Assembly (NCBI GenBank): GCA_017409345.1
Contig: JAFQSX010000004.1
Coordinates: 62,001 to 126,000, forward strand
DNA from: Muribaculaceae bacterium
Lineage (GTDB): Bacteria > Bacteroidota > Bacteroidia > Bacteroidales > Muribaculaceae
DNA length: 64,000 nt
Direction: 5' to 3'
The translations under genes and the position numbers were made by a program. A model generated the notes under the pieces. That model made no database searches. It saw only the letters and a program-made list of their open reading frames with translations, and was not told where the DNA came from. This document shows, in pieces, positions 1,925-53,558 of this stretch; position 1 is the first letter of the stretch; each line of letters begins with the position of its first letter.

Positions 1925-1956
1925 TTTGCAATTTCACTCCTTTTTGTTTACTTTTG
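1925..1956 (+). promoter_or_regulatory. Bacteroidota-type promoter for the mini-FtsZ operon
   Basis: TTTG (1925-1928), 20-nt spacer, TACTTTTG (1949-1956). Fits the TTTG-N19-21-TAnnTTTG consensus; 52 nt before the start codon at 2009. Confidence 0.75.
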
Positions 1957-1978: not shown

Positions 1979-2001
1979 AAACTTTAAACTACTTAACTAA
2001 T
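1979..2001 (+). repeat. Leader repeat copy 1
   Basis: A 23-nt segment just upstream of the 2009 start, matching 21 of 23 positions with 2295-2317 upstream of the next gene. Both end in ACTTAACTAAT close to the start codon. Probably a shared translation-initiation leader; could be shared ancestry. Confidence 0.6.
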
Positions 2002-2008
2002 AAATTCG

Positions 2009-2275
2009 ATGAGTAAAATTTTAATTATTGGCGTTGGCGGAGGAGGTATCTTTGCCGTAGAGAACATGAAAAAAGTGGGAATTCCCGAGGCTAATTATAT
2101 AGGGATAGGCATGGGGTGCCAAAATCTTGCGGGAAATATCCCTTATTATGATTTAAGGGAAATGAATGGGAGTCCGAATTTACCACTACACCCAAGTCCA
2201 AATTTGTGCCGAATGCTTGCCGAAAATGTAGAAGAACAAATAGGCAAAATCATCAACAAACATATAAAAGATTAA
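2009..2275 (+). CDS. Orphan FtsZ N-terminus-like mini-protein (88 aa)
   Basis: The sequence starts KILIIGVGGGGIFAVENM, which lines up with the first strand, glycine-rich T1 nucleotide loop and first helix of FtsZ (KVIGVGGGGxNAVxxM). The next part (YIGIGMGCQNLAGNIPYYDL) lines up with the FtsZ strand that normally ends NTDAQAL, but the NTD is replaced. The last third (PNLCRMLAENVEEQIGKI) resembles the FtsZ helix before the tubulin signature. The protein stops there: no GGGTGTG loop, no T7 loop, no C-terminal tail, so it cannot be a polymerising GTPase. It has its own promoter and leads into an ADP-ribosylglycohydrolase gene 40 nt downstream. FtsZ relationship is inferred by eye and needs a structure or profile search; a different Rossmann-type mini-protein is the alternative. 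Confidence 0.6.
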   Translation: MSKILIIGVGGGGIFAVENMKKVGIPEANYIGIGMGCQNLAGNIPYYDLREMNGSPNLPLHPSPNLCRMLAENVEEQIGKIINKHIKD

Positions 2276-2294
2276 TTCTATTACACTTATTAAA

Positions 2295-2317
2295 AAACTT
2301 TAAGCCACTTAACTAAT
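2295..2317 (+). repeat. Leader repeat copy 2
   Basis: Second copy of the 23-nt leader seen at 1979-2001 (two mismatches, in the middle). Its last two bases overlap the ATG at 2316. Confidence 0.6.
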
Positions 2318-3278
2318 GATGACAAAAGAACAAATTTATGACCGAATGATGGGATGCCTTTATGGTCAAGCTATTGGTGATGCTCTTGGATTGGGAGGAG
2401 AAGGTCAATATGCCGATGGCATGAAACGAATGTATCCAAACAAGCTCCAACGATATGATGAGATTATTCCTTTTGCTCATGTGAGGCTATGGAAGCCGGG
2501 GGAATTTACTGACGACACTGACCAAATGCTTTGTATTCTCAATGCATTATTGAGCGACAATTGTATTAATCCCAATACTCTTGCTAAAAACATTCTTAAT
2601 TGGTATGAAACCGACGGTATGGGGTGCGGGGCTCTAACATCCAAGATTATTCATGCTCCAGGGTGGCTTGAGGCTCCAATTGAAACATCTAAAATCGTGT
2701 GGGAACTAACTAATAAGAATAGTGCTCCAAATGGTGGATTGATGCGTACATCGGTGGTAGGCTTATGGAATGAATATGTAATCGAAAATGCAGAAAAAGC
2801 ATGCATGGTGACTCACTATGACCCTCGATGCGTAGGGTCGTGCGTGATTGCATCTTTGATTATAAACAATCTTGTGTGGAACAACAAGGAACTGGGCTAT
2901 GATGAAATTATAGAAATAGCCAATCAATATGACTCACGAATAGCAGAATGGGTTACTTTAGCCAAAGAAAGCAACGACATCAGTGAACTTTATCTTGACG
3001 ACGAAACGTCAATGGGCTATACTTTGCGTACGTTAACCGCGGCTCTTTGGGCTTATTGGCATAGCCCCAATTTCACTTCAGGATTAATCGATGTGGTGAA
3101 TGAAGGAGGCGATGCCGATACCAACGCATCAATAGCATGTGCCATTTTAGGCGCAAAATTTGGGTATGGTTCTATCCCATCGCATTATGTTGAAAAAATG
3201 TATAAAACAGATGAATATCGCGCCACATGCGAAAAATTCTCTAATCTTTGTTTATCTAAATTTAATAATTATAACTAA
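2316..3278 (+). CDS. ADP-ribosylglycohydrolase family protein (DraG/ARH-like)
   Basis: 320 aa. It opens with the typical GCLYGQAIGDALG segment (13-25) and has both metal-binding motifs: T65-D66-D67-T68-D69 within GEFTDDTDQML, and GGDADTN at 264-270. These acidic residues hold the two Mg ions that hydrolyse the N- or O-glycosidic bond of ADP-ribosylated residues or ADP-ribosylated small molecules. No signal peptide, so cytoplasmic. ATG at 2316, or the next ATG at 2319. It follows the FtsZ-like mini-gene in the same transcription unit. Many members of this family have unknown substrates; the neighbour makes a protein-linked ADP-ribose plausible but this is inference. Confidence 0.9.
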   Translation: MMTKEQIYDRMMGCLYGQAIGDALGLGGEGQYADGMKRMYPNKLQRYDEIIPFAHVRLWKPGEFTDDTDQMLCILNALLSDNCINPNTLAKNILNWYETDGMGCGALTSKIIHAPGWLEAPIETSKIVWELTNKNSAPNGGLMRTSVVGLWNEYVIENAEKACMVTHYDPRCVGSCVIASLIINNLVWNNKELGYDEIIEIANQYDSRIAEWVTLAKESNDISELYLDDETSMGYTLRTLTAALWAYWHSPNFTSGLIDVVNEGGDADTNASIACAILGAKFGYGSIPSHYVEKMYKTDEYRATCEKFSNLCLSKFNNYN

Positions 3279-3288
3279 TTAATTTAAT

Positions 3289-3972
3289 GTGAAACATTTT
3301 ACATTTATACTCATCGCTTTAGCTATATCCTCTTCAATAGGTTGCTATTCTACAACTAACATCTCAAACAATCCAACCGATTCTTTGAAAAATACATCAG
3401 ATACACATGAATATATTCACCCATCTTTATTAGACGATGACCCCTATAATGACACAACTATATACACACTCGAAGATATTATTGAACTTCGTGATACTCT
3501 AATTGGAAATTTTAGTGGTGATGGAATAGACACTCTTATTGCAGAACCTATTGGATTTAAAACTCTTCGCAAAAACTTCAGAATATATAGCACCAGTGGA
3601 AAAATTAAGCCTTTATATGTTTACGAAATTTGGGACGTAAGAATGATTTCCGAAGAAGATTTAGATGGGAATGGCACTGATGAATTTGGCATTAGATGGG
3701 AACTTGAAATGGGTAACTGGACTACATATTATATATTCACATACCTAAATAATCAGTGGAATTTATTAACCGAACCACTCTTCCATTATGCGTCACATTT
3801 TTATGAAGATTTAGAAGTTGTAAATGCAGTAAAACCAACGAAGAAAAAAGGATATATTGAGGGTACCAAATCTCATAGTGGTGATGATTTTTGGATTGAA
3901 TATAAAAGAATCAAAATTAATCCACAACCTCTACCAAAAAGCATTATTCACTTTGGCGATATTGTAGAATAA
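3289..3972 (+). CDS. Putative lipoprotein with DxDGxG-type repeats
   Basis: 227 aa, GTG start 10 nt after the ADP-ribosylglycohydrolase stop. The N-terminus is a hydrophobic signal ending SSIGC (Cys19), consistent with a lipoprotein signal peptide. Two Asp/Gly-rich loops (NFSGDGIDTLIAE about 65-77 and DLDGNGTDEFGI about 122-133) look like FG-GAP/VCBS-type Ca-binding turns of a beta-propeller, though only two are visible. No enzyme motif seen. Operon position suggests expression with the upstream two genes; whether it shares a function is unknown. Confidence 0.65.
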   Translation: MKHFTFILIALAISSSIGCYSTTNISNNPTDSLKNTSDTHEYIHPSLLDDDPYNDTTIYTLEDIIELRDTLIGNFSGDGIDTLIAEPIGFKTLRKNFRIYSTSGKIKPLYVYEIWDVRMISEEDLDGNGTDEFGIRWELEMGNWTTYYIFTYLNNQWNLLTEPLFHYASHFYEDLEVVNAVKPTKKKGYIEGTKSHSGDDFWIEYKRIKINPQPLPKSIIHFGDIVE

Positions 3973-3986
3973 TCCCTATTATTCCG

Positions 3987-3994
3987 TATCTTTG
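3987..3994 (+). promoter_or_regulatory. -7 box TATCTTTG before the SanA/YdcF-like gene
   Basis: Consensus TAnnTTTG element 18 nt before the ATG at 4013, with a possible -33 TTG at 3962-3964 (22-nt spacer). It decides the start: a TTG at 3992 lies inside this box and is not a credible start codon. Confidence 0.65.
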
Positions 3995-4012
3995 CAAAAA
4001 ATTAGACTAAAC

Positions 4013-4666
4013 ATGCATATTTCTCAAAAAACAATGATTCGAATTATAATTTGGGCTATCCTACTTATTGTTCTTACAATAATTTGTTGCTACTCAATAG
4101 TATCAATAAATGCCTCGAACAAGACTTTTGATAACGCAAAAGATATACCTAATAATGAAGTAGGGTTATTACTTGGCACTTCCCCTCGCACTCCGGAGAA
4201 TGCCCCTAATTACGATTATATCAATCGCATTATTGCTACTGCTGAGTTATACAAGGGTAGTAAAATTAGTAAAGTAATTGCAAGTGGCGGTGACTACTCT
4301 TCGCGTCAGGATGGTTATAATGAATTAGAAGCAATGCGAGATTCGTTAATAGAATATGGCGTGCCCGATAGCGTGATTATTCTTGACTACGAAGGTACCC
4401 GCACACTAAATTCCATTGTAAAAGTTAAAGAAATATATGGCTATGATAATATTACTCTAATTTCACAAAAATACCACAATGAAAGAGCCATATATCTCGC
4501 GTCACAAAATGGCATAAACGCCATAGGATATAATGCGAAACCTTCTCACATTATCACCAAACGAATAAAAAACGAAGGCCGCGAATTTCTTGCACGAGTG
4601 AAGTTGTTTATCGACATGATATTAGGAGAAAAACCTACATTTAAGTCTTCAACTAATAATCAGTAG
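4013..4666 (+). CDS. SanA/YdcF-like DUF218 membrane protein
   Basis: 217 aa from the ATG at 4013; an upstream in-frame TTG at 3992 is rejected because it sits in the promoter. One N-terminal transmembrane helix (about residues 7-27) is followed by a DUF218 domain: GLLLGTSPRT near 48-57, ASGGDYSSRQDGYNEAEAM-like motif near 88-105 (here with NELEAMRDSL), LDYEGTRTLNSIVKVKEI, and a final SQKYHNERAIYLASQNG segment. SanA and relatives are inner-membrane proteins linked to envelope barrier function and vancomycin tolerance in enterobacteria; the chemical activity is not established. Single gene with its own promoter. Confidence 0.85.
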   Translation: MHISQKTMIRIIIWAILLIVLTIICCYSIVSINASNKTFDNAKDIPNNEVGLLLGTSPRTPENAPNYDYINRIIATAELYKGSKISKVIASGGDYSSRQDGYNELEAMRDSLIEYGVPDSVIILDYEGTRTLNSIVKVKEIYGYDNITLISQKYHNERAIYLASQNGINAIGYNAKPSHIITKRIKNEGREFLARVKLFIDMILGEKPTFKSSTNNQ

Positions 4667-6367: not shown

Positions 6368-6916
6368 TTAACCGATTATCAAATTAAATAGCCCACCTAT
6401 AACAAACGGAGGCAACATAACCGATAAAATAGCCATTATTATATAATAGCCTATATATTTTTCTTTTATTGCCAAATATCTTGATGCTTTCCATAACACG
6501 ATGGCCACATAAAGATATAAAAAATACACCAACGACAACTCAACAGGCAAACAACTTTGAACTGCATTTATTAATGCCAAAATGGCAAGGGAATAAATTA
6601 TAATTGTTGAATATTTTTTTTCATTTGGAGTACCCTCAACCCAAAAACTCAATGTTGATGAAAACACAAGCGAAGCAACAAAATAAGTTATAAAAAATTG
6701 GACAAAAATTATAATTGCACGCTGAAGTAATACAACTAGACTCAATTCTGAGTCATAAAAATACTGAACAAAAGCCATTAACGAAGCAAAACCTATTATA
6801 GGATATAGCCCATTAGCAGCCAATGACTTTGGATCTTCACTGTCATGAGAAATATCTTCCCATCCATTTCCAGGTGATAGAATCAGTTGAAATATATTTT
6901 TAATAAATTTAAGCAT
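6368..6916 (-). CDS. Yip1-like multi-pass membrane protein
   Basis: 182 aa from ATG at 6916. The frame can be extended to 6988, but that would place the start upstream of a -7 box at 6931-6938, so the shorter start is preferred. Four to five hydrophobic helices (about 36-56, 65-85, 104-124, 127-140, 152-178). The N-terminal LSPGNGWEDISHDSEDPKSL resembles the cytoplasmic lead of Bacteroidota Yip1/DUF1282-type membrane proteins. Function unknown. Upstream member of an operon with smpB. Confidence 0.65.
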   Translation of the reverse strand: MLKFIKNIFQLILSPGNGWEDISHDSEDPKSLAANGLYPIIGFASLMAFVQYFYDSELSLVVLLQRAIIIFVQFFITYFVASLVFSSTLSFWVEGTPNEKKYSTIIIYSLAILALINAVQSCLPVELSLVYFLYLYVAIVLWKASRYLAIKEKYIGYYIIMAILSVMLPPFVIGGLFNLIIG

Positions 6917-6930
6917 TCTGATATTTTTTA

Positions 6931-6938
6931 CAAAGATA
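6931..6938 (-). promoter_or_regulatory. -7 box TATCTTTG for the Yip1-like/smpB operon
   Basis: Exact TAnnTTTG match on the minus strand, 14 nt upstream of the ATG at 6916. No clear -33 TTTG at the expected distance. Confidence 0.6.
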
Positions 6939-7061
6939 CAACATTTAAATATTAAATTTTCACTATACGAAAAAAATCTCAAAAACATTTAATATTTAAC
7001 ATTTATAAGTCAATGAGTCTCAAAAAAACTTATTTGTGTTACAAGTATAAAAATAAACTAC

Positions 7062-37939: not shown

Positions 37940-38036
37940 ATTAAAAAATGTGAGCTTTTTGGCATATTATTTGTTGTAAATATAGTATAATCATTAACTT
38001 TAATTAATTGACATCTATTTAATGATGAATTTTAAT

Positions 38037-38044
38037 TACTTTTG
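38037..38044 (+). promoter_or_regulatory. -7 box TACTTTTG of the rsfS-ftsH operon
   Basis: TAnnTTTG match 29 nt before the rsfS ATG; no good -33 at normal spacing. Confidence 0.55.
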
Positions 38045-38073
38045 TATAGAATTTACTAATCATAAAATAACCA

Positions 38074-38433
38074 ATGACTGAAAACATTGACATCACACAA
38101 TTAATAATCGACGGAATTCAAGAACGCAAAGGCAAAGGTATTTCAATCGTAGACATGAGTCACATTGAATCAGCAGCAACCGAGCGTTTTATTATATGTG
38201 AAGGAACATCAACAATGCAAGTTAGCGCAATTGCCGATAGTATTAGAGATTTCCTTCTTGAACATGCCGGTATTAAGCCATACAACTATGATGGCTATCA
38301 AAACTCTCAATGGATTGTAATCGATTATGGCAACACTTTAGTACATGTATTTATCCCTGAATTTCGTTCACTTTACAATCTTGAAGAATTGTGGAGCGAT
38401 GCAAAAATCACACAAATACCAGATTTAGATTAA
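38074..38433 (+). CDS. rsfS: Ribosomal silencing factor RsfS
   Basis: 119 aa, typical for RsfS/Iojap. Conserved segments are GISIVDMSHIESAATERFIICEG-like strand (about 24-46) and the C-terminal WIVIDYGNTLVHVFIPEFRSLYNLEELW. It binds L14 on the large subunit and blocks subunit joining when nutrients are limiting. Followed by ftsH 18 nt downstream; this rsfS-ftsH order is common in Bacteroidota. Confidence 0.95.
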   Translation: MTENIDITQLIIDGIQERKGKGISIVDMSHIESAATERFIICEGTSTMQVSAIADSIRDFLLEHAGIKPYNYDGYQNSQWIVIDYGNTLVHVFIPEFRSLYNLEELWSDAKITQIPDLD

Positions 38434-38451
38434 AATAACACACAATATATT

Positions 38452-40524
38452 ATGGCAAATTTAAACCCTACAAATAGATCAAAAAAAACGACATTTAAAT
38501 TTAGCATATTTTGGATGTATGCTGTGATTCTCATATTCTTAGGCGGAATGTATTTTCTTAATAATGAAGGAAATACAATGGACAAAGATGTATCTCTCCA
38601 AGAATTCAACAAATATGTAACCAAAGATCATGGTATCACCAATATTGTAATTAATGATGACAATACTGTTGTGGGAACATTAAATGATTCATTAGCATCA
38701 AAAATTTTCCCTAATCAATACAACTTAATAAAAAGTAAAGGTGCTGTCGCTCGTGTGCATACCATATGTGACCAACAAGTCATGACTTCACAAGTTAATA
38801 AATGGACCGAAGATGGAATTTATCACGGAACATTTATTGTTGAACAAGAAAGCAGTCTTAGTAAAATATTTTGGTCTATTGGTCCACTTGCCTTGATTAT
38901 TATATTTTGGATTTTTATGATGAGACGAATGTCTAGTGGTGGCGCCGGAGGTGGCGGAATTTTCAATGTTGGCAAATCTAAAGCCCAAATTTTTGATAAA
39001 GAAGGAGCCGTAAAGGTAAACTTTAGTGATGTGGCAGGATTAGCTGAAGCCAAAACAGAAATAGAAGAAATCGTTGAATTCCTTAAAAATCCTCGTCGCT
39101 ACACTGAACTTGGTGGCAAAATTCCCAAAGGTGCACTTCTTGTAGGCCCTCCCGGGACAGGGAAAACTCTTCTAGCAAAAGCCGTTGCTGGAGAAGCAAA
39201 TGTCCCATTTTTCTATATGTCAGGGTCTGACTTTACTGAAATGTTTGTAGGAGTAGGAGCATCACGCGTACGAGATTTATTCCGTCAAGCAAAAGAAAAA
39301 GCACCTTGTATCGTATTTATTGACGAGATTGACACCGTGGGTCGTGCTCGCGGAAAAAGTCCAAGTATGGGAGCAAACGACGAACGTGAAAACACCCTAA
39401 ACCAACTCCTTACCGAAATGGACGGTTTCGGAACAAATAGTGGTGTTATTATCCTTGCGGCAACTAACCGTGCCGACATTCTTGATAAAGCATTGTTGCG
39501 AGCCGGTCGCTTTGACCGCCAAATATATGTAGAATTGCCCGACCTAAATGATCGTGTTGCGATATTTAATGTACATCTTCGTGGCATTAAAATAGATGAT
39601 AGTGTAGATGTTGACTTGCTCGCTCGACAAACTCCTGGTTTTTCAGGGGCCGACATCGCAAATGTATGTAATGAAGCAGCTCTGATTGCGGCTCGTCATA
39701 ATAAAACAGTCGTAGAACGTCAAGATTTTATTGATGCTGTTGATCGTATAATTGGAGGTCTTGAAAAAAGGTCTAAAATAACGACCGATGAAGAAAAACG
39801 AGCAATCGCAATACACGAAGCAGGCCATGCTACCGTGTCATGGCACCTTCAATATGCAAATCCTCTTATAAAAGTTACCATTGTGCCTCGTGGTAAGGCT
39901 CTTGGTGCGGCATGGTACTTGCCTGAAGAACGACAAATAACCCCATCTCAAGCAATCCTTGATGACATTTGTTCTCTACTTGCAGGACGAGCCGCTGAAG
40001 AACTATTCTTGGGTCACATTTCTACAGGGGCCGCAAATGACCTTGAAAGGGTCACAAAGCAAGCATACGCAATGGTTGTGTATTATGGTATGAGTGAAAA
40101 ACTTCCAAATATCAGCTATTATGACTCTACAGGTCAAGAATATGGTTTTGCGAAACCTTTTAGCGATGATAGAGCAAAGATGATTGATGAAGAAGTATCT
40201 CGAATTATCAATGAACAATATGAACGTGCGAAAGCATTACTTAAGCAATATTCACAAGGACACAAAGAGCTGTCCGATATTTTAATCTCTCGAGAAGTTA
40301 TCTTTACTGAAGATGTAGAGCACATATTTGGCAAACGTCAATGGACTTCTCGTACAGATGAAATACTTGCCGCAAAATCGGCAGAAGCCGAACAAGCCGA
40401 GCAAAAAGAGATTGCAGAAAATGCTGAAATAGAATCTGAAAGAAAAAATAAAGATTCTAAAGAAAATGCGCACAAAAAAGAAAATACATATCCGGCAAAT
40501 ATGCCACCATTACCCCAAAAGTAG
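38452..40524 (+). CDS. ftsH: ATP-dependent zinc metalloprotease FtsH
   Basis: 690 aa. Two membrane helices (about 17-36 and 139-157) flank a ~100-residue periplasmic domain. AAA module: Walker A GPPGTGKT (232-239), Walker B IVFIDEID (287-294), [21 protein letters not shown]. Protease: HEAGH (455-459) and the third zinc ligand D530 in [10 protein letters not shown]. It degrades membrane and short-lived cytoplasmic proteins and is normally essential. The Glu/Lys/Ala-rich C-tail (about 640-690) is low-complexity. A terminator hairpin follows. Confidence 0.97.
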
Positions 40525-40543
40525 AAACTTATAATCTAAAATA

Positions 40544-40585
40544 CTTAAAAAGTTATGCTTTTAATAATAGGCATAACTTTTTAAG
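40544..40585 (+). terminator. Hairpin terminator after ftsH
   Basis: Perfect 15-bp stem (40544-40558 with 40571-40585), 12-nt AT-rich loop, T-rich right arm. No separate T-run follows. Confidence 0.7.
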
Positions 40586-40595
40586 TGAAAATTCC

Positions 40596-40603
40596 TACCT
40601 TTG
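40596..40603 (+). promoter_or_regulatory. -7 box TACCTTTG for the BamA-like gene
   Basis: TAnnTTTG match 19 nt before the ATG at 40623. Confidence 0.6.
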
Positions 40604-40622
40604 CAAGTCTTTATAAATAGTA

Positions 40623-41900
40623 ATGAATAGAATTCATCAAATAATAACCCTTTTTATTGCATTAATTCTGTCAGGAGGCAAAATATATGCAACTGAAGAT
40701 GCTGATTCTATTCGTTCTAACCATGAAGTTATTCAAGGTGCTTTTTATGTATCTCCCGCGCCACTACCATACGAAACACCTAAATCCCCAACTGAATTTC
40801 CCGACTCATTAGGATTACTCAGCAAAGCCCCGGACTGGTTAAAAAAATACATCAACTCATTAATGCGAGGAAATGTTGATCGCACTCATGAAAAAAAATT
40901 TGATGTCGGATTTGGAGTAATTCCATCATACACACGTGAAGCAGGTTTTGGTATAGGTGGTGCAATGACCGGTTTATATCGAGTTAATCAAAAAGACTCT
41001 ACAATGCAACCATCCGATTTTTTTGCGTCATTGAATGCTTCGTATAATGGATTCTTTGTATTAACAATGAAAGGTAATCATCTATTTCCTAATCATAAAT
41101 CTCGCCTAACATATAAAGCCGAATTATATCGCAAACGTTTAGACTTTTGGGGTATCACTGCAGAAGAAACTGCAAAAAATCCAAAATCACAATATGATCG
41201 TCGACAAATTGACTTTCAAGCAGAATATATATATAAAATAAATAGAAACTTTTATGCCGGAGTTCAGGCTCGCACAGATTATACTGATGCAATCAATGTA
41301 AGAAATCCGGAGTATTTACAAGGAGAACGTAATCAATACTTTGTCTCTGGCATAGGCTTTTCTTTTGAATTTGACACTCGCGACAACCTCGTCACTCCCA
41401 CTCGTGGCATACATATCGCATATAAACCAATGATATTTCCTAAATTCATGGGTAATGCGTCAACCACATTTCATAGTCATAATCTAATTCTTAATGGTTA
41501 TTTTAGGATGTGGAAAGGTTCGGTTTTAGCATTAGATTGGTATACTAAAATTAACAGTAACAATACCCCTTGGACTATGCGTGAGATGATGGCATCAGAT
41601 GGCATCAGAATGCGTGGATACTATATGGGGTCAACAATTGACAATAGCCAAGTAACAGCACAAATTGAATATCGTCAACATGTATGGAAGCGCCTTGGTT
41701 TTGTATTATGGGGAGGTGGTGCGACTTTATTCTCATTTTCTGACGAAAATGTTCGCAATGACAACAATCGACCAGAATGGCTCCATAACTTTGGTGTAGG
41801 CTTACGCTTTGAATTCAAACATAATGTAAACATCCGTATTGATTATGGGTTTGGGCAAAGGACTTCTGGCGTGTTGTTTGCAATTGGAGAAGCATTCTAA
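40623..41900 (+). CDS. BamA/TamA-like surface-antigen barrel protein
   Basis: 425 aa. Signal peptide ending IYATED (about 24). The C-terminal ~320 residues show alternating beta strands of the bacterial surface antigen (D15/Omp85) barrel with the segments FEFDTRDNLVTPTRGIH (about 251-267) and, near the end, GGGATLF and NIRIDYGFGQRTSGVLFAIGEAF, ending in Phe. No POTRA domains are present, so this is a short barrel-only member like other Bacteroidota BamA/TamA homologs; function not known. Lone gene between terminators. Confidence 0.82.
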   Translation: MNRIHQIITLFIALILSGGKIYATEDADSIRSNHEVIQGAFYVSPAPLPYETPKSPTEFPDSLGLLSKAPDWLKKYINSLMRGNVDRTHEKKFDVGFGVIPSYTREAGFGIGGAMTGLYRVNQKDSTMQPSDFFASLNASYNGFFVLTMKGNHLFPNHKSRLTYKAELYRKRLDFWGITAEETAKNPKSQYDRRQIDFQAEYIYKINRNFYAGVQARTDYTDAINVRNPEYLQGERNQYFVSGIGFSFEFDTRDNLVTPTRGIHIAYKPMIFPKFMGNASTTFHSHNLILNGYFRMWKGSVLALDWYTKINSNNTPWTMREMMASDGIRMRGYYMGSTIDNSQVTAQIEYRQHVWKRLGFVLWGGGATLFSFSDENVRNDNNRPEWLHNFGVGLRFEFKHNVNIRIDYGFGQRTSGVLFAIGEAF

Positions 41901-41923
41901 TCAAGCAATATATTTAAGATTAA

Positions 41924-41955
41924 AAAACCTCGTGAGTTAAATATCACGAGGTTTT
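41924..41955. terminator. Bidirectional terminator between BamA-like gene and bcp
   Basis: 12-bp perfect stem AAAACCTCGTGA (41924-41935) with TCACGAGGTTTT (41944-41955), 8-nt loop, flanked by A- and T-runs. Shared by two convergent genes. Confidence 0.85.
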
Positions 41956-41961
41956 AACTTA

Positions 41962-42420
41962 TTATTTTACTTCATTCATTATTTGATTTGCAGCCTCTTT
42001 GGTATTCACTTTATTTATAATATGAGTAATAACTCCATCTTCATTTGTAACAAATGTTGTCCGCACTGTTCCCATATAAACTTTTCCACACATTTTCTTT
42101 TCTTGCCATACACCAAATGCATGATTTAGCGTCAAATCCACATCTGAGATCAATGTAAATGGGAGTGAATATTTATCAGTAAACTTACGATGTGACGCAA
42201 CACTGTCCTTACTAACTCCAATTATTTCAAAGCCAGCCTTCTTTAAATTATTATATTCCGATGCAAAACTACATGCCTCTGCAGTACACCCAGGAGTACT
42301 ATCTTTAGGATAAAAATACAATACTACTTTTTTCCCTTTAAATTGAGATGCAGTAACTTGATTTCCATCAGCATCAACTCCTAATATATCAGGTAATTTA
42401 TCTCCTATTTTTAATGCCAT
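41962..42420 (-). CDS. bcp: Thioredoxin-dependent thiol peroxidase (BCP/PrxQ)
   Basis: 152 aa from ATG at 42420 (MALKIGDKLPDILG); the frame extends upstream to 42462, past a -7 box, so the shorter start is used. Active site DSTPGCTAEACSFASEY places the peroxidatic Cys45 and resolving Cys50 five residues apart, the atypical 2-Cys PrxQ form. Then KKVVLYFYPKD and the DVDLTLNHAFGVW region. Reduces hydroperoxides with thioredoxin; cytoplasmic. The start and sequence are typical. Confidence 0.95.
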   Translation of the reverse strand: MALKIGDKLPDILGVDADGNQVTASQFKGKKVVLYFYPKDSTPGCTAEACSFASEYNNLKKAGFEIIGVSKDSVASHRKFTDKYSLPFTLISDVDLTLNHAFGVWQEKKMCGKVYMGTVRTTFVTNEDGVITHIINKVNTKEAANQIMNEVK

Positions 42421-42443
42421 AATATTTATTTTTTTAGTTTTTA

Positions 42444-42451
42444 CAAAAATA
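42444..42451 (-). promoter_or_regulatory. -7 box TATTTTTG for bcp
   Basis: TAnnTTTG match on the minus strand, 23 nt upstream of the chosen bcp ATG; fixes the start. Confidence 0.55.
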
Positions 42452-42529
42452 AGAATTCTCACTATTTATTTAATTATAGTTTTGGTTAAAATAAATAAAC
42501 AACCAATTTATATCATTCATCTACTAAAT

Positions 42530-42775
42530 TATAAGTCTGCACCGTTGCCGTTTCAAAGTCAGAAACGGCGTTTTTTTGAACAATTTGCGTGATGTTATTG
42601 CTCGTTTCAATGACATTGATATTGTAGTAGATTTTTATTTGGTGGAAGTGGTTTGCGTGCTCATACAGTGAAGCGAGAATGCTAGTAACTGAATGTAATC
42701 TACAACGATTATGACAACTATTGTGAGAGGCTTGCAAATATTGCCAGAACAAACTATCATAACAATTTGGAATGA
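42530..42775 (+). pseudogene. Decayed fragment of a phage-type D12 DNA adenine methylase
   Basis: Reading three connected frames recovers the start of a phage-type adenine methyltransferase. Frame +2 (from ~42530): KSAPLPFQSQKRRFFEQF; frame +3 (42588 on): RDVIARFNDIDIVVDF; frame +2 again (42641 on): GGSGLRAHTVKREC, two stops, then NVIYNDYDNYCERLANIA and a stop at 42773. GGSGL..HTVK is the SAM-binding motif I and VIYNDYDNY the next strand of D12-class enzymes. Two frameshifts and internal stops mean it is dead, and the catalytic DPPY region is gone. The rest of 42452-42529 shows nothing. A perfect hairpin plus T-run lies at 42547-42577 inside it. The antisense frame 42513-42782 is a shadow. 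Confidence 0.7.
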
Positions 42776-42822
42776 AACCCACAAAATAATGATAAAATAA
42801 ACGACCTAAACGTTAATAGCTT

Positions 42823-42850
42823 AAACGGTGGCCTAATCGGTCACCGTTTT
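42823..42850 (+). terminator. Hairpin terminator after the methylase remnant
   Basis: 11-bp stem (one G-U pair) 42823-42833 with 42839-42849, loop TAATC, then Ts. No intact plus-strand gene ends just before it, so it may be a leftover of the decayed gene. Confidence 0.7.
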
Positions 42851-42906
42851 TATTGATTTTTTATTTATTCTCAAATCAAAAGTCTATTTTATTACCCAAT
42901 AATTAG

Positions 42907-44559
<1,653 letters not shown>

Positions 44560-44582
44560 CCCATAATTTAACCTATAAAAAA

Positions 44583-44876
44583 ATGGTAAAACATATCGTT
44601 GCATTTAAACTAACCGGGACCGATGCAGAGCGTCGCGAAGTTGCGTTCAAATTTAAAGAAGCATTGATGGCTCTTCCAAAAGAGATTGAGGTACTTCGTT
44701 CTATGGAAGTTGGCATCAATGAAAATCCCAATGAAACATGGGATGTAGTACTCACTGCTGTCGTTGATAAAATGTCAGATGTCGAAGTTTATGCTAAACA
44801 CCCTGCTCATGTTGCTGCTGCCGGGTTACTTATGGGATACAAAGGAGACCGAGCATGCGTTGATTATGAATTTTAA
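44583..44876 (+). CDS. Dabb family stress-responsive dimeric alpha-beta barrel protein
   Basis: 97 aa. MVKHIVAFKL at the start, GINENPNETWDVVLTAVV in the middle and YAKHPAHVAAA near residue 70-80 are the Dabb (SSP, PF07876) pattern, where HPAH is conserved. It forms a dimeric ferredoxin-like barrel; no ligand known. 23 nt after the ABC-F gene, likely same transcript, and followed by a bidirectional terminator. Confidence 0.9.
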   Translation: MVKHIVAFKLTGTDAERREVAFKFKEALMALPKEIEVLRSMEVGINENPNETWDVVLTAVVDKMSDVEVYAKHPAHVAAAGLLMGYKGDRACVDYEF

Positions 44877-44886
44877 ATCGCGAATT

Positions 44887-44926
44887 TAATAAAGAAAAGC
44901 ACTCAACGGAGTGCTTTTCTTTATTA
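44887..44926. terminator. Strong bidirectional terminator
   Basis: Perfect 18-bp stem (44887-44904 with 44909-44926) with tetraloop AACG. A-rich and T-rich flanks let it serve both the Dabb gene and the convergent DUF4923 gene. Confidence 0.9.
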
Positions 44927-44947
44927 TAACTATTTTGAAGATTTCAT

Positions 44948-45577
44948 TTATTGTTTCTTCAACTTAAACCCTGCTGTTATTCCATCATAACTATCTACCA
45001 ATGATATTATTCCCTTAAATGTTTTATCACTAGAATATTGAGAAACCATCTTAACTAATTTTATTAATTTTTTAATATCAAATGTCAAACTTAACGTACT
45101 GCCTGAAATCGTTGTATAAGCATTCAATTTGCCGATTTTCACTTTTCCGAAAGCCTTGAAATTAAATATGTAAAATCCATTTTCTCCTTTTTCAATCGCA
45201 CCTTTTAAAGTTGCATATTTAGTCTTCATTGAGAATGTATTATCCTCTGCGATTGTTAATACTAATTTATCCAACCCAGCCTTAGCATAATATCCTTTTA
45301 ACTCACTTTCAATCTTAACAGATGCTACTGAAGCGCCCGCTTTTTTTAAGATGTTTTTACTTTGAAAGCCAACTGCAGGACTTTCATAATTCCATGTACC
45401 AATTAATTGGTTTACTTCGACCTTATCAGTTGCTAAAATATTACCTAATGCTCCACTTATTGTTGATGATTTTGTTGAATCCCCAGTGAGTTTTTCGGCC
45501 AAAGAGCCCCAATTTAATTGCGCACAACATTGAATAGTTATACCCAATATAAAAAACAATAGAATTAATTTTTTCAT
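44948..45577 (-). CDS. DUF4923 lipocalin-like secreted protein
   Basis: 209 aa. Signal peptide (MKKLILLFFILGITIQCCAQ). Mature part starts LNWGSLAEKLTGD and holds the lipocalin-like core LIGTWNYESPAVGFQSKNILKKAGASVASVKIESEL and LVLTIAEDNTFSMKTKY, as in DUF4923. Known only as a Bacteroidales family. It follows the dehydratase gene on the same strand with 7 nt between, so they are probably co-transcribed. Confidence 0.85.
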   Translation of the reverse strand: MKKLILLFFILGITIQCCAQLNWGSLAEKLTGDSTKSSTISGALGNILATDKVEVNQLIGTWNYESPAVGFQSKNILKKAGASVASVKIESELKGYYAKAGLDKLVLTIAEDNTFSMKTKYATLKGAIEKGENGFYIFNFKAFGKVKIGKLNAYTTISGSTLSLTFDIKKLIKLVKMVSQYSSDKTFKGIISLVDSYDGITAGFKLKKQ

Positions 45578-45584
45578 TCAATAT

Positions 45585-47555
45585 TTACTTTTCTATTTTT
45601 AATTCTGCATCAATATCTTGCCATTTGGAATTTTGTGAAATATATTCAGGCACAATGCATTTCATCTCTGCCACAATATCGTGAAGATTATCACATTTTA
45701 GCATAAGTTCCAAATTTATTAGATGAGATTGTATCTCGTTATACTCATATGTCCTAACCTTTGCAATCATAATTTTTTGATGAGTTGTCGCAAGTGTAAG
45801 TTCTTTATCGTTAAGAAGTTCCTCATAAAGTTTTTCGCCTGGACGCAAACCGGTTTCAATTATTTGAATATCTTTATTTGGGATTAATCCGGCTAGTGAA
45901 ATCATACGAGATGCCAAATCATAAATTTTAATAGGCTTTCCCATATCAAATATGTATATCTCACCACCACGCCCCATGCATCCCGCTTCTAATACAAGTT
46001 GACAAGCCTCGGGGATTGTCATAAAATAGCGAATAATATCTCGATGAGTCACAGTAACAGGCCCCCCCTCTTCTATTTGCTGACGAAAACGAGGTATAAC
46101 CGAACCATTACTTCCTAGTACATTTCCAAATCGAGTCGTGATAAATCTTGTACATTGTCCATCTCGTGTTTTCTTTTGATGAAAGAATAATGATTGAACA
46201 TATATTTCAGCAATTCGCTTAGATGCACCCATTACATTAGTTGGATTTACAGCTTTATCAGTCGAAATCATCACAAATTTATCTACATCATATTTTACCG
46301 ATAAATCTGCAATGTTTTTTGTTCCGAAGACATTAGTATAAATTGCCTCCGATGGATTATTTTCCATCATTGGGACATGTTTATATGCTGCTGCATGGAA
46401 TACATATCTTGGTCTATGCTGTTTAAAAATATTATCCATTCTGCTATAATTGGTAATATCTCCAATAAATAGCTTTACTTTCATATCGGGAAAATGCTCT
46501 TCTAGCTCTAACTGCAGCTCATGCATTGGCGTCTCGGCCTGATCTACTAGAATTACCTCTTTCGCATTAAATAATGCAACTTGACGCACTATTTCAGAAC
46601 CAATCGAACCAGCCGCGCCAGTTATTAACACAACCTGCTCTCGGATTAATTGTTCAATTAATGGATTATTATTTTTAATAGTTTCTCTTCCTAATAAATC
46701 CTCAATCTTAATATCCCGTACATGTGTTGACAAATTAGGCATTAATCCACTTTCTGCATCAAATTCCTCAACTTGATTAAGCATTATTAATTTTATATTA
46801 TTCTTGAGAAAGACATCAGCAAAATCACTTCTCATCAACTCTATTTGTGTGGACAAGAACAACAATGTATTACACTTATATCTTTCAAATATTTCAGAAA
46901 TAGAATTTGGTGTAAATTTAACAATTGGAATACCATTTACTGTTGTATCAATTTTTTTATCTGCCAAACTCAACAATGCAACCGGATCAAATTGTCCGTC
47001 TACTTCATTTTTCAAAGCACTAGCCAATACAAATGAATTGATTGCAGATCCCAATACTATGACAGGTTTTCGCACAACTGTTGCTCCATTTATCAATGCA
47101 TACAAATACTTAACAACAAGCCTCATACACATCATCAAAGAAAACGAAAAGACTCCTATTATAAATAAGTTCCAAATACTATAATATCGTTGTCCCCCAA
47201 ATATTTCAAATGCTAACGCAAATATTGTCAAGAATATAAATGAAGATATTACTAACAAAACTATCCGATAAATATCTTCAATGACTGATAATCTAACAAT
47301 ATATTGAAATGACTTAAAAACAACACTGAATAACAGATATACCAGAACGATTATGATACTCTTAAAAAACAACGAGTATAGTGGACCATCTCCCTGTATA
47401 TGATTATTCAATGTAAATGTCAAAATACAACTCAACGCAACAATCGCCAAGTCCGCTAATAGAACCATCCACCTAGGAGCCGGTGTTGCTGCCATTATTT
47501 TCACAAATGACATTTTAGACAATCTTATTATAAAACGTCGACCAAAAATGCTCAT
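45585..47555 (-). CDS. Membrane-bound nucleotide-sugar 4,6-dehydratase (CapD/WbpM/PglF-like)
   Basis: 656 aa. Four N-terminal membrane helices (about 31-50, 60-80, 97-117, 130-150), a regulatory Rossmann-like region (about 160-290), then the SDR domain with NAD motif GAAGSIGS (313-320), YKHVPMMENNPSEA (391-404) and STDKAVNPTNVMGASK (431-446). The catalytic Tyr of the YxxxK pair is Met442 with K446, the S-M-K arrangement of WbpM/PglF-type enzymes. Makes a 4-keto-6-deoxy UDP-sugar for surface polysaccharide or protein glycosylation. No other polysaccharide genes sit beside it here. Confidence 0.93.
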   Translation of the reverse strand: MSIFGRRFIIRLSKMSFVKIMAATPAPRWMVLLADLAIVALSCILTFTLNNHIQGDGPLYSLFFKSIIIVLVYLLFSVVFKSFQYIVRLSVIEDIYRIVLLVISSFIFLTIFALAFEIFGGQRYYSIWNLFIIGVFSFSLMMCMRLVVKYLYALINGATVVRKPVIVLGSAINSFVLASALKNEVDGQFDPVALLSLADKKIDTTVNGIPIVKFTPNSISEIFERYKCNTLLFLSTQIELMRSDFADVFLKNNIKLIMLNQVEEFDAESGLMPNLSTHVRDIKIEDLLGRETIKNNNPLIEQLIREQVVLITGAAGSIGSEIVRQVALFNAKEVILVDQAETPMHELQLELEEHFPDMKVKLFIGDITNYSRMDNIFKQHRPRYVFHAAAYKHVPMMENNPSEAIYTNVFGTKNIADLSVKYDVDKFVMISTDKAVNPTNVMGASKRIAEIYVQSLFFHQKKTRDGQCTRFITTRFGNVLGSNGSVIPRFRQQIEEGGPVTVTHRDIIRYFMTIPEACQLVLEAGCMGRGGEIYIFDMGKPIKIYDLASRMISLAGLIPNKDIQIIETGLRPGEKLYEELLNDKELTLATTHQKIMIAKVRTYEYNEIQSHLINLELMLKCDNLHDIVAEMKCIVPEYISQNSKWQDIDAELKIEK

Positions 47556-47734
47556 CTTAAAATAGTTTTCTTATTTATCACAAAGTTAGTTTTATTTTTT
47601 AAATAACCCAATTTTTTCATTTTCATTTTTGATATACATTAAAATAATACGTTAATATATTGATCACTTTTTCCAATCTAATAAGTGTTAATCTATTTTA
47701 ACTCACAAATCAATTTAGATTGAATAAAATAACG

Positions 47735-47742
47735 TATCTTTA
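47735..47742 (+). promoter_or_regulatory. -7-like TATCTTTA before the DUF4493/PCMD cluster
   Basis: One mismatch to TAnnTTTG, 43 nt before the ATG at 47786. A TTTAG is 18 nt upstream. The remainder of 47556-47734 has no recognised feature. Confidence 0.45.
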
Positions 47743-47785
47743 CAAATTAAATCATTGCATTATTTTTTAAATAATCTATTTTTAA

Positions 47786-50323
47786 ATGTTTGTCTTAAAA
47801 TCTCGCGTTGCGATACTGTTGATAATAGTAGTTTGCTTTATGTCATGTACCACAGACAACGCTCCAACTACTAGCGGATGTGGTGCTGTAAACCTTAATT
47901 TAGACATCAACTCACATATTATCTGCACATCTGACACTAATCTTATTCTTGAAAATTCACCATCTATTGATAGTTTTGAAATCTCTATGAGAAATTCTGA
48001 CGGGCAATATAATCATTCTTGGAATTCTTTTTCAGACTTTCCTCAAAATGAATTATTCAGAACTGACAATTATATTATTACTGCTTCATATGGAGATATT
48101 ACTAATGAAGGTTTTGATTGTCCTTGTTTCATTGGTAGTTCTAATTTCAGTGTTACTGATGATGAAATTTCAAATGTCAATATTGAATGTAAACTAGCCA
48201 ATACTATGGTTTCAATCATTTATACTGATTCATTCAAGGAATTTTTCAAAGATTATGAAGCAAAACTTCATTCCGAAGGAGGATTATATATTTCATATGG
48301 GAAAGAACAATCTCGCCCAATGTTCTTAAAACCCGGACGAATATCGTTAACTTTATCTCTTACTAAAAAAAATGGGATAAATGCGACTTTTCAGCCAACA
48401 GACATTGTAATGGCATACCCACAGCACCATTATCATATCACTCTTGATGTAATTAGTGAGAATGAAGGAAATGAAAACCTAGTAATCAAAAGTGATGCAT
48501 CAAATGCATTAAAAGACATATATATTCCATTAAATGATGAATATATGACCTCTCCTTCTCCTATTATTACTACGACAGGATTTAATAGCGATAACTCAAT
48601 AAGCATATATGAAGGAGAGAATCTTTCCTCTTCTATTATCGCATCAATTTCCTCACAAACAGGGATAAAAGAGCTAACATTAACAACACAATCTAAATCT
48701 CTAATTAATAACGGGTTCCCAGAGGAAATAGATTTAGCAAACATAACCGCTGAACAACAGGACGTTATATCTGCGATGGGGTTAAAATTAGACTCCTCAT
48801 GGTCAGAATTGAATCAATGTATTCAACTAGACTTTACCAATTTAGTTAAGAACATTTCTCCATCAGAACTCGATGAAGACATATCCTCATTTACAATTGT
48901 CGCAAAAAATAATTTATTAAAAGCAAACGAACCGGTCTCGTTAAATATTTATATTAAACCCATTGAATTTAATGTTAAGAATTCTCCGCAATCAATAATT
49001 GGGATTAATAGATCTAATATTCTAATTTTTTCTACTAATCCCATTAACATTTCAAATCTTGAATTACAAGCGACCGACGACAATAATAATTGGCACAAAT
49101 GTAACATCGAATCATTTAGTCTAATCGAGGAAAACACATATTCAATAGATTTCTCAATCCCACATGGAGTATCTGATGCTTCTCTCAATATAATATACAA
49201 TCACAAAATTAAACAAAATGCAACTATTTCTCGTATATCCCCAAAGTTTGACATTGAAGTAGATGCTTTTGCCAATAAAGCACTCATAAAAATAGTTGCC
49301 GATAATGACAGTCTTACTGATATTATCACAAAAAACATCAGTATATATGCGAATGATTTTGAACCTGCAATTTTAGGAAGGAGTCCATCTTATGGAATTG
49401 TTTCAATTTCCGGATTAAATCCTAAGACTTCTTATTTAATAAAAGCAACCATGATGAAAGGTAATCCTAATGCGACATATTCCAATACAGTAAAAATAAC
49501 TACTGAATCAAACGAAAATGTGCCCGATGGGGATTTTGAAGATGTAAAAGAGCGAATTAATAGCATTATTTTAAGTGGCGGTAAATATTCACAAACTCAT
49601 ATGCCAATATATAATCAACAAAACAAAACAGAGTTTAAAGTTTCAACTCCTAAAAAGAACTGGGCAACTGTAAACTCTAAGACATTTTACGAATCATCAA
49701 CTAATAAGAATACTTGGTATCTGCAGCCTTCCACAATGACAATCTACGATGCAATATCGGGCTCAAAAGCGATGAAATTATCAAGTGTTGCATGGGACAC
49801 AAATGGGGCTGAAATACCCGATTATGCACAAAAACGAGGAGAATATGTGCCATATAATAAGAACATTCCACACATATCATATCGTGCAGCCGGTAAATTA
49901 TTCTTAGGCGAATATAAATTTGATGCCAAAACAAATATCGAAACATATGACGAAGGAATTCCATTTAGTTCTCGTCCCACTGCTCTAAATGGATATTACA
50001 AATACACTCCAAGTATTAATCAACTTCACGACAAAGGAATTGTAATTATCTCTATTATAAATAAAACAACAGATAGTGAAATCGAAATCGCTCATGGAGA
50101 ATTCCTTTTCTCTGGCAATTCTGACTATACGGCATTTAATGTTCCTCTTTCATATAAGAGTTTTGGAATTAAAGCAACTCATTTAAGAATAATGTTTGCA
50201 TCATCAAACAATATTGGTTCAATTCAAGATGAAACTATGAATATAATTACCACTCATGATGTTGCGTCGGCATCGTCTATAGGCAGTTCTTTGTGGATTG
50301 ACAATTTAACATTCTCATATTAA
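47786..50323 (+). CDS. DUF4493-PCMD domain lipoprotein
   Basis: 845 aa. Lipoprotein signal ending CFMSC (Cys21). Residues ~33-180 are a DUF4493 domain: SFEISMRNSDGQYNHSW, then YIITASYGDITNEGFDCPCFIG and VNIECKLANTMVSI. The middle (~270-590) is beta-rich, with fibronectin-like repeats (LNPKTSYLIKATMM). The last ~250 residues are a PCMD domain (VPDGDFEDV, then AAGKLFLGEYKFD and SSRPTALNGYYKYTP), named for possible carbohydrate metabolism but of unknown activity. Surface or periplasmic beta-sandwich protein. First gene of the cluster through 55133. Confidence 0.85.
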   Translation: MFVLKSRVAILLIIVVCFMSCTTDNAPTTSGCGAVNLNLDINSHIICTSDTNLILENSPSIDSFEISMRNSDGQYNHSWNSFSDFPQNELFRTDNYIITASYGDITNEGFDCPCFIGSSNFSVTDDEISNVNIECKLANTMVSIIYTDSFKEFFKDYEAKLHSEGGLYISYGKEQSRPMFLKPGRISLTLSLTKKNGINATFQPTDIVMAYPQHHYHITLDVISENEGNENLVIKSDASNALKDIYIPLNDEYMTSPSPIITTTGFNSDNSISIYEGENLSSSIIASISSQTGIKELTLTTQSKSLINNGFPEEIDLANITAEQQDVISAMGLKLDSSWSELNQCIQLDFTNLVKNISPSELDEDISSFTIVAKNNLLKANEPVSLNIYIKPIEFNVKNSPQSIIGINRSNILIFSTNPINISNLELQATDDNNNWHKCNIESFSLIEENTYSIDFSIPHGVSDASLNIIYNHKIKQNATISRISPKFDIEVDAFANKALIKIVADNDSLTDIITKNISIYANDFEPAILGRSPSYGIVSISGLNPKTSYLIKATMMKGNPNATYSNTVKITTESNENVPDGDFEDVKERINSIILSGGKYSQTHMPIYNQQNKTEFKVSTPKKNWATVNSKTFYESSTNKNTWYLQPSTMTIYDAISGSKAMKLSSVAWDTNGAEIPDYAQKRGEYVPYNKNIPHISYRAAGKLFLGEYKFDAKTNIETYDEGIPFSSRPTALNGYYKYTPSINQLHDKGIVIISIINKTTDSEIEIAHGEFLFSGNSDYTAFNVPLSYKSFGIKATHLRIMFASSNNIGSIQDETMNIITTHDVASASSIGSSLWIDNLTFSY

Positions 50324-50352
50324 AAAATTAATATTTAACTTACATAAATTAC

Positions 50353-51882: not shown

Positions 51883-51914
51883 ATTAAATTTAATAAACTA
51901 ATAAAATATTTCAC

Positions 51915-52676
51915 ATGAAAATTTTACGTATCACATTATGCACTCTCCTGGCGATATGCATAAGTAGCACTATATATGCACAAGATACCATAAACACTCA
52001 AGAGCCCAAACCATTCAAACGCAATCTTGAGCAAGTGTCATTTATTCCCAAGGGTCAATGGATTACCGGTGTCAATGTAAATTACTCTCAATCAAACAGC
52101 GACAACTATCAATTCTTCATCGTAGAAAACTTAAATGGCAACAGCTATTCATTTAAAGTAAGCCCTATGGCTATGTATGCATTTAAAGATGACATGGCTG
52201 TGGGTGGACGTTTTGCTTATGATCGTCAAATGACTAAATTAGAATCAGGTACAGTTAAAATCGATTCTGAAACAGATTACGATGTTAACAACTTATATAG
52301 CTTAAGACACAACTACTATGGCACTGCTGCTTTTCGCAACTACATAAGCATGGGCAAAAGCAAGCGTTTTGGTTTCTTTAATGAAGTACAACTACAAGTT
52401 GGTGGCGGTCAATCAAAATTATGTAACGATAGTGGTGATGATTTGACCGGAACTTATGAGAAGAACTTCTCCATAGGCGTAGGGGTATCTCCCGGTATAG
52501 TTATGTTCCTTAACAACTATTCTGCAATAGAAGTGAATGTTGGTATTGTAGGATTTAATTATACTCACACCAAGGCCACAACCGACCAGATTTATGTATC
52601 TGACCGCAAGAGTTCGTCTGCAAACTTTAAGTTAAACCTCATGTCAATTTCTTTTGGAGTTGCTTTTTATTTATAA
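51915..52676 (+). CDS. Outer-membrane beta-barrel protein A of the cluster
   Basis: 253 aa. Signal peptide ending TIYAQD (about 22). Mature start shows FIPKGQWITGVNVNYSQSNSDNYQF, then alternating strands including SFKVSPMAMYAFKDDMAVGGRFAYDRQ and AFRNYISMGKSKRFGFFNEVQLQVGGGQ, and a hydrophobic C-terminus ending AFYL. Resembles small 8-10-stranded outer-membrane proteins. The downstream gene is a paralogue: both share IPKGxW, FxNYI and FFNE/IFNE motifs. Lipoproteins on both sides suggest a joint surface complex. Confidence 0.75.
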   Translation: MKILRITLCTLLAICISSTIYAQDTINTQEPKPFKRNLEQVSFIPKGQWITGVNVNYSQSNSDNYQFFIVENLNGNSYSFKVSPMAMYAFKDDMAVGGRFAYDRQMTKLESGTVKIDSETDYDVNNLYSLRHNYYGTAAFRNYISMGKSKRFGFFNEVQLQVGGGQSKLCNDSGDDLTGTYEKNFSIGVGVSPGIVMFLNNYSAIEVNVGIVGFNYTHTKATTDQIYVSDRKSSSANFKLNLMSISFGVAFYL

Positions 52677-53545: not shown

Positions 53546-53558
53546 TATATTTTGCCTT

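What the first reader, a model, noticed from the sequence alone, without database searches (positions are those of the whole stretch)
2009..3278. Orphan FtsZ N-terminal mini-protein next to an ADP-ribosylglycohydrolase
Seen: an 88-aa protein that keeps the FtsZ T1 loop (IGVGGGGxxAVxxM) and the alignment through the third helix, then stops before the GTP-binding tubulin signature; 40 nt later, in the same promoter unit, is an ADP-ribosylglycohydrolase with complete metal motifs. Known: the toxin Tre1 ADP-ribosylates FtsZ, and its immunity protein Tri1 is an ADP-ribosylglycohydrolase. Inference: the pair could protect against, or act as a decoy for, FtsZ-targeting ADP-ribosyltransferases, or regulate division through ADP-ribosylation. 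It could instead be a truncated FtsZ paralogue beside an unrelated enzyme.
Basis: partly seen in the sequence, partly recalled or inferred. Interest (0 to 1): 0.72.

Follow-up and report, generated by a model that had tools for sequence, protein, structure and literature searches.

The report
Half-FtsZ module beside ADP-ribose eraser
A few gut bacteria carry a small protein that is the first quarter of the cell-division protein FtsZ, next to, or fused with, an enzyme of the kind that strips ADP-ribose off other molecules; the pairing is real, recurrent and rare, but what it does is not yet known.

Summary
Window 2009-2275 encodes an 88-aa protein homologous to the FtsZ N-terminus (E. coli FtsZ up to ~residue 97), ending before the GTP-binding signature; 40 nt on lies an ADP-ribosylglycohydrolase (ARH) with intact motifs. 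A six-member profile hits FtsZ in the PDB (E 3.5e-8; next other protein 0.038); an FtsZ profile scores the members 35-42 bits, shuffles at most 8.5. The pairing is not chance: in two other genomes, at different places, the two domains are one continuous reading frame. Six genomes carry the full module (five with ARH fused, adjacent or 2.5 kb away; one without); remnants occur in three. Related ARHs mostly lack it (17 of 22); five of those 17 lie near Macro, DUF1810 or NUDIX genes. The window's block (mini, ARH, lipoprotein, DUF218) looks recently exchanged as a unit at a variable site; DUF218 also adjoins the module in another genus. The literal Tre1/Tri1 reading is weakened: FtsZ Arg174 lies outside the fragment, five carrier FtsZs lack it, and the module has no invariant arginine. 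Best guess (0.35): a mobile two-mode immunity cassette, FtsZ mimic plus eraser.

The parts
1925..1956 (+). Bacteroidota-type promoter match TTTG-N20-TACTTTTG upstream of the mini gene
   Evidence: one of 3 exact matches in 64 kb, 0.66 expected by chance; consensus recalled; no RNA data
1979..2001 (+). 23-nt leader, first copy of a direct repeat that brackets the mini gene
   Evidence: copies 91% identical, 316 bp apart
2009..2275 (+). mini gene: 88-aa FtsZ N-terminal half-domain (T1 glycine loop kept, ends before the tubulin signature)
2295..2317 (+). second copy of the 23-nt leader, at the start of the ARH gene
2316..3278 (+). ADP-ribosylglycohydrolase (ARH), 320 aa, TDDT and GGDADT motifs intact
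3289..3972 (+). putative lipoprotein of unknown family (GTG start; ATG in G103), 10 nt after ARH; low divergence like the rest of the block
   Evidence: lipoprotein assignment by eye
3992..4666 (+). DUF218 protein; a 61%-identical homologue lies 15 nt before the fusion gene in G138, and another lies just before a mini remnant in G149

Best explanation
The pair is most likely a mobile immunity cassette against toxins that ADP-ribosylate cell-division proteins (or something that looks like FtsZ to them). Shown: the first protein is a stand-alone FtsZ N-terminal half-domain, the second an ARH with intact motifs, and the two recur together and can fuse with the FtsZ part at the N-terminus. Inferred: the FtsZ part works as a binding mimic that engages an incoming ADP-ribosyltransferase, while the ARH erases ADP-ribose already added; two modes in one unit, as in Tri1, whose immunity combines physical sequestration and enzymatic removal. 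The mimic need not itself be a substrate and probably does not bind GTP, because of the nucleotide site only the T1 loop is well kept. A mimic that blocks on its own would explain why G129 keeps it without a detectable ARH, and an eraser that works alone would explain why most related ARHs lack it.
For: Two in-frame single-ORF fusions, mini at the N-terminus, in two genomes at different places (open frames of 420 aa in G138 and 438 aa in G149). The mini lies 40 nt from ARH in G000 and G103, 2.5 kb from it in G1073, and a mini remnant lies 65 nt before ARH in G082 (17.3 bits against 8.0 for the best of 2,000 shuffles). Mini-linked ARHs fall in two parts of the ARH tree. The mini gene is under purifying selection. 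Mobility: dS of mini, ARH, lipoprotein and DUF218 between window and G103 is 0.007-0.060, against 0.22-1.94 for eight flanking genes; the site holds other cargo, a HepT-like gene among it, in G053 and an ARH relic in G141. ARH is a described immunity type tied to R-S-E ART toxins (PMC3482391, passages), and Tri1 is bifunctional (PMC7827354 and PMC12469244, passages). Of 17 ARHs of the subfamily without module, 5 have an ADP-ribose/NAD-type gene within 700 nt upstream: Macro in G034, NUDIX/NrtR in G266, DUF1810 in G145, G074 and G283 (the link of DUF1810 to ADP-ribose is recalled, and one search found nothing to support it).
Against: No cognate toxin was found: PF01129 has no match in any of 8 carrier or remnant genomes; that is one ART family of many, and none of its 14 control genomes passed the cut-off either, so the test is weak. 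Arg174 is outside the fragment and missing from the FtsZ of five carriers. Most ARHs of the subfamily have no mini (17 of 22). G129 keeps the mini without any ARH match at E 1e-4 (83% complete). In G1073 a HEPN/nucleotidyltransferase pair and at least one more ORF lie between the two genes. An 88-aa half-domain may not fold alone; no structure could be predicted. Nothing here measures binding or activity.
Confidence: 0.35

Rival explanations
1. Targeting module: the FtsZ half-domain docks the eraser onto the cell's own FtsZ or Z-ring, so that ARH cleans ADP-ribosylated division proteins quickly. The FtsZ part is an address tag, not a decoy.
For: Fusion to an eraser and kinship to FtsZ itself are what an address tag would look like; works with either fused or separate genes.
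Against: The T2/T3 region of the module has diverged; a tag without its enzyme (G129) makes little sense; no binding data.
Confidence: 0.22
2. Accessory nucleotide- or ADP-ribose-binding domain: a half Rossmann-like piece of FtsZ reused, through its T1 phosphate loop, to bind ADP-ribose or a nucleotide and steer the ARH; no link to cell division.
For: The glycine loop is the best kept part (GxGGGG in five of six full members). Upstream neighbours of 5 of 17 related ARHs are Macro, DUF1810 or NUDIX genes, that is, ADP-ribose/NAD-type modules.
Against: One full member has GDGG; the T2 and T3 loops have changed and T4 is missing (contact roles recalled).
Confidence: 0.2
3. Endogenous division control: the FtsZ half-domain interferes with FtsZ assembly (a toxin-like part) and the ARH restrains or reverses an ADP-ribosylation step that governs it.
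For: Two-gene unit with a small first gene; pieces of FtsZ could plausibly poison assembly (inference).
Against: Mini without ARH in G129 and the very patchy distribution do not fit a housekeeping regulator.
Confidence: 0.1
4. Unrelated passengers: a fragment of FtsZ and an ARH that simply share a mobile site; adjacency has no functional meaning.
For: The site is a cargo hotspot; G129 has mini without ARH, G141 an ARH relic without mini; a mini remnant beside DUF218 in G149 has no ARH match after it in the stretch held.
Against: Two in-frame fusions at different places and recurrence of the pair; rough own estimate of chance for one locus about 2e-4 (22 of 297 genomes carry such an ARH, times 6 kb in 2.5 Mb).
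Confidence: 0.13

Closest known systems
Tre1/Tri1 (Serratia proteamaculans type VI effector and immunity protein; Ting et al. 2018, seen only as cited in PMC7827354, PMC12469244 and PMC10789625)
   Same: An ARH-type eraser, FtsZ as the theme, and a two-part protective logic (blocking plus removal).
   Different: No ART toxin recognised beside it; the blocking part here would be a piece of FtsZ itself; Arg174 is absent from the fragment and from the FtsZ of five carriers; score 99.5 against a Tri1 cut-off of 490.
Imm-ARG immunity proteins of polymorphic toxin systems (PMC3482391, passages)
   Same: ARH domain in variable loci.
   Different: Those are said to associate strictly with R-S-E ART toxins; here none was recognised next door, and an FtsZ half-domain is added.
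FtsZ (TIGR00065 / PF00091)
   Same: First ~97 residues: strand S1, T1 loop, H1, S2, S3, H2 (names recalled).
   Different: Stops before the T4 signature; no rest of the GTPase domain, no C-terminal domain; not a GTPase by sequence.
DUF1810-ARH fusion in G283 (L119)
   Same: A small domain N-terminal to an ARH, next to an ARH of the same subfamily.
   Different: DUF1810 in place of the FtsZ piece, and a different ARH type.

Membership tests
ADP-ribosylglycohydrolase (PF03747) | profile score over the curated cut-off | tested here: met
   199.5 bits against 26.2
ADP-ribosylglycohydrolase (PF03747) | two-metal motifs TDDT and GGDxDT | tested here: met
   residues 65-68 and 264-269, invariant in A1; role of the motifs recalled
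ADP-ribosylglycohydrolase (PF03747) | hydrolase activity and linkage specificity | not testable with these tools
   no assay
FtsZ | homology over the N-terminal part | tested here: met
FtsZ | tubulin signature GGGTGTG and full GTPase domain | tested here: not met
   absent in every mini and fusion frame examined
FtsZ | curated equivalog cut-off | tested here: not met
   window sequence 18.3 bits against 295.2; bits of the other members not shown
Tri1 | NF041672 equivalog cut-off | tested here: not met
   99.5 bits against 490
Tri1 | cognate ART toxin next to it | tested here: inconclusive
   none recognised by eye among neighbouring ORFs; PF01129 0 of 8 genomes, control weak; other ART families not searched
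Tri1 | host FtsZ carries the Tre1 target Arg174 | tested here: not met
   five carrier FtsZs have S, G, G, E, E there; 0 of 86 distinct Bacteroidota FtsZ have Arg in the column, 1 of 86 (a non-carrier of the same genus) in the column before; the FtsZ of G1073 was not examined
Imm-ARG | association with R-S-E ART toxins | tested here: inconclusive
   as for the cognate toxin of Tri1

The most novel reading that the evidence does not exclude
A piece of FtsZ has become an autonomous module, fused or paired with an ADP-ribose eraser, that acts as a molecular mimic of the toxin's target: a built-in bait plus repair enzyme, which would be a new design of bacterial immunity and would imply that Bacteroidota meet toxins that attack FtsZ at a site other than Arg174.
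Probability: 0.25. Interest if true: 0.85.

Novelty: new variant of a known kind. Interest (0 to 1): 0.6.

Why it matters
FtsZ is usually thought of as a whole GTPase; half of its nucleotide-binding domain living alone, and fused to an ADP-ribosylglycohydrolase, is unexpected. If the module is a target mimic, it would show immunity by bait-plus-repair and point to unknown division-targeting ADP-ribosylating toxins in gut Bacteroidota. The two natural fusions make the idea directly testable with single purified proteins.

Tried and rejected
The viral-contig scan with the module (two peptide patterns, 51 candidate stretches, none confirmed) and tblastn of the module against plasmid and phage records gave nothing. 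The fusion protein as query found ARHs in 66 plasmid and 28 phage records, of which 15 and 15 were listed; the listed plasmid matches lie in or within ten residues of the ARH part, three phage matches begin earlier (query 51-64), but the two of these that were opened hold no frame matching the module at E 1. The 100-aa gene before a Prevotella plasmid ARH is not related by eye. Short frames that matched: three of 241-250 aa (G066, G011, G046) are ThiF-like by eye, two (246 aa in G136, 270 aa in G166) are FtsZ cut by contig ends. The idea that all module-linked ARHs are one clade: rejected for the five intact cases (p-AU 9.6e-7), but with the remnant-bearing G082 added only p 0.031, so two separate pairings are likely, not proven; the groups were named after a first tree had been seen. 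The idea that the lipoprotein is a constant partner: no convincing similarity between the window's lipoprotein and chosen neighbours in G149, G082, G1073 or G032. The idea of an Arg174-type decoy: not borne out. My first count, 0 of 89 FtsZ, held 3 repeats; it is 0 of 86, and 25 of 86 have some Arg within E. coli positions 169-180, so a nearby arginine target is not excluded in the group at large.

Papers: PMC7827354, PMC12469244, PMC3482391, PMC9503650 and PMC10789625 passages only; PMC11833690 abstract, outline and passages; the rest listings; Ting et al. 2018 not held. That no FtsZ-ARH fusion is in print rests only on this open-licence library and on ten searches.

Full report
WHAT IS THERE. 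The window is part of a 2.09-Mb, 75%-complete genome (G000); the closest named relatives are Muribaculaceae metagenome bins from goat caecum and dairy-cattle rectum. ORF 2009-2275 encodes 88 aa; 40 nt later ORF 2316-3278 encodes a 320-aa ADP-ribosylglycohydrolase. A lipoprotein-like gene follows after 10 nt and a DUF218 gene after that.

THE MINI-PROTEIN IS A PIECE OF FtsZ. Alone, it matches FtsZ weakly: NCBIfam ftsZ E 0.0011, PDB FtsZ E 0.01, no Pfam Tubulin hit. With relatives the case is firm. The six-row alignment A2 as a profile finds PDB FtsZ chains at E 3.5e-8 over positions 3-86; rows 1-49 of 59 are FtsZ, and the first other protein is at E 0.038. Member by member, 6 of 6 match NCBIfam ftsZ (best 7.5e-7) and 4 of 6 Pfam Tubulin (best 0.0011). 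The reverse test, a profile of 76 FtsZ N-termini, scores the six members 35.4-42.0 bits; the best of 3,000 shuffles and 6 reversed sequences scores 8.5. Among the loci fetched by then, A2 finds 84 other frames at E 1e-3 (a few fetched twice): 80 hold GG[GA]TG[TS]G and the other 4 a GKGTGTG variant, so all 84 look like FtsZ. The module aligns to E. coli FtsZ up to residue 96-101, keeps the T1 glycine loop, mostly P74, and the A-E of the last helix, has changed in the T2 and T3 loops, and ends before T4 (loop names recalled). So it is FtsZ-derived, but not an FtsZ, and GTP binding is unlikely (inference).

HOW COMMON. Searches: family 297 genomes, order 393, phylum 395, genus of G138 9, the genus of the Prevotella genome G1073 299, family again at 93% completeness or more 174; the sets overlap. 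Full modules: G000, G103, G129, G138, G149 and G1073. The many other matches (116 genomes at E 0.01, 91 and 119 at 1e-7) are taken as FtsZ: those fetched were checked, the rest only by score and frame length; three frames turned out ThiF-like. Remnants: G032 (C-terminal half, 61-aa frame, no ARH match in that genome), G082 (C-terminal half 65 nt before ARH; 17.3 bits against 8.0 for the best of 2,000 shuffles) and a second place in G149 (N-terminal part, 36.2 bits, directly after a DUF218 gene). Short remnants elsewhere would have been missed. No module was found in viral contigs, plasmids or phages.

THE PARTNERSHIP. In G138 and G149 the module and ARH form one uninterrupted frame, module first, linker of about ten residues. 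The two lie in different surroundings. In G000 and G103 the genes are 40 nt apart. In G1073 they are 2.5 kb apart with a HEPN/nucleotidyltransferase pair and at least one more ORF between. G129 has the module but no ARH match at E 1e-4 (83% complete). Thus 5 of 6 full modules have ARH fused or within 3 kb. Conversely, of 22 Muribaculaceae ARHs of the close subfamily (360 bits or more, 297 genomes), 4 have a full module, 1 a remnant, and in 17 none was seen (upstream sequence ends early at some contig ends). On a tree of 28 ARHs the module-linked ones fall in two places; one clade is rejected without G082 (p 9.6e-7) and only marginally with it (p 0.031).

A FOUR-GENE BLOCK AT A VARIABLE SITE. 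Between window and G103, dS (Nei-Gojobori) is 0.018 (mini), 0.060 (ARH), 0.007 (lipoprotein) and 0.054 (DUF218), but 0.22-1.94 in the eight flanking genes measured, which points to recent exchange of the block; the flanks themselves are mosaic. In the same genus the site between the flavodoxin and methyltransferase genes holds: module, two lipoproteins and DUF218 (G129); a 277-aa protein without Pfam match and a HepT-like gene (G053); a 48-codon ARH relic without module (G141). DUF218 adjoins the module in another genus too: 15 nt before the fusion in G138, and before the module remnant in G149, whose intact fusion lies elsewhere. In the nine same-genus genomes without module and in G032 the DUF218 matches are absent or weaker (best 38% identity over most of the protein, and a 52% partial match). 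A 23-nt repeat (1979-2001, 2295-2317) brackets the module, and the G141 relic keeps an ARH-type leader and no module (by eye), so the module looks like a separable insert (inference).

CONTEXT OF RELATED ARHs. Of the 17 without module, 5 have within 700 nt upstream a DUF1810 gene (G145; G074; in G283 fused to another ARH), a Macro domain (G034) or NUDIX/NrtR (G266). Upstream proteins of five others (G130, G081, G096, G021, G039) were scanned without a match over a Pfam cut-off; the remaining seven were not scanned; one of them, G108, looks Sel1-like by eye. This is in part an ADP-ribose/NAD and conflict-type setting.

MECHANISM. Tri1 protects by sequestering Tre1 and by removing ADP-ribose (PMC7827354; PMC12469244); ARH is a described immunity enzyme (PMC3482391). 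The architecture here, an N-terminal extra domain and a C-terminal eraser, suggests the same two-mode logic with an FtsZ mimic as the blocker. Against the literal Tre1 case: Arg174 is outside the module; the FtsZ of five carriers has S, G, G, E, E there, and 0 of 86 distinct Bacteroidota FtsZ have Arg in that column, though 1 has it in the column before and 25 somewhere in positions 169-180; no arginine is invariant in the module; and no ART of family PF01129 was found in 8 genomes (weak control). An address-tag role, an accessory binding role, division control and mere co-transfer remain.

VERDICT. Real, rare, and a new domain combination as far as ten searches of an open-licence library show; function inferred only.

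Noticed in passing
window 6368-6988: A membrane-protein gene (Yip1-like by eye) is only 52% identical to its counterpart in G103, while its neighbours SmpB and kinase are 98% and 91%: a strongly divergent gene at a conserved place.
   Followed up: partly
L108 6962-8379 (G129): Two tandem copies of the lipoprotein-like gene stand where the window has ARH and one lipoprotein.
   Followed up: no
L119 2312-3553 (G283): A DUF1810 domain is fused to an ADP-ribosylglycohydrolase, directly next to another ARH gene.
   Followed up: partly
L138, minus strand, just downstream of DUF218 (G149:C6): A broken N-terminal piece of the module follows DUF218, as in G138, while the intact fusion of G149 lies on another contig.
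   Followed up: partly
L109 7471-7653 (G032) and L111 2502-2708 (G082): Two module remnants keep only the C-terminal half; whether that half alone is kept for a reason is unknown.
   Followed up: partly
L104 (Prevotella sp. E2-28 plasmid, record 38019-54909): Two ARH genes lie within 5 kb, near VWA, serine/threonine kinase and TerY-C genes.
   Followed up: no
L151 about 3678-3821 (G141): ARH relic of about 48 codons at the same site as the window's ARH, with no mini gene.
   Followed up: partly
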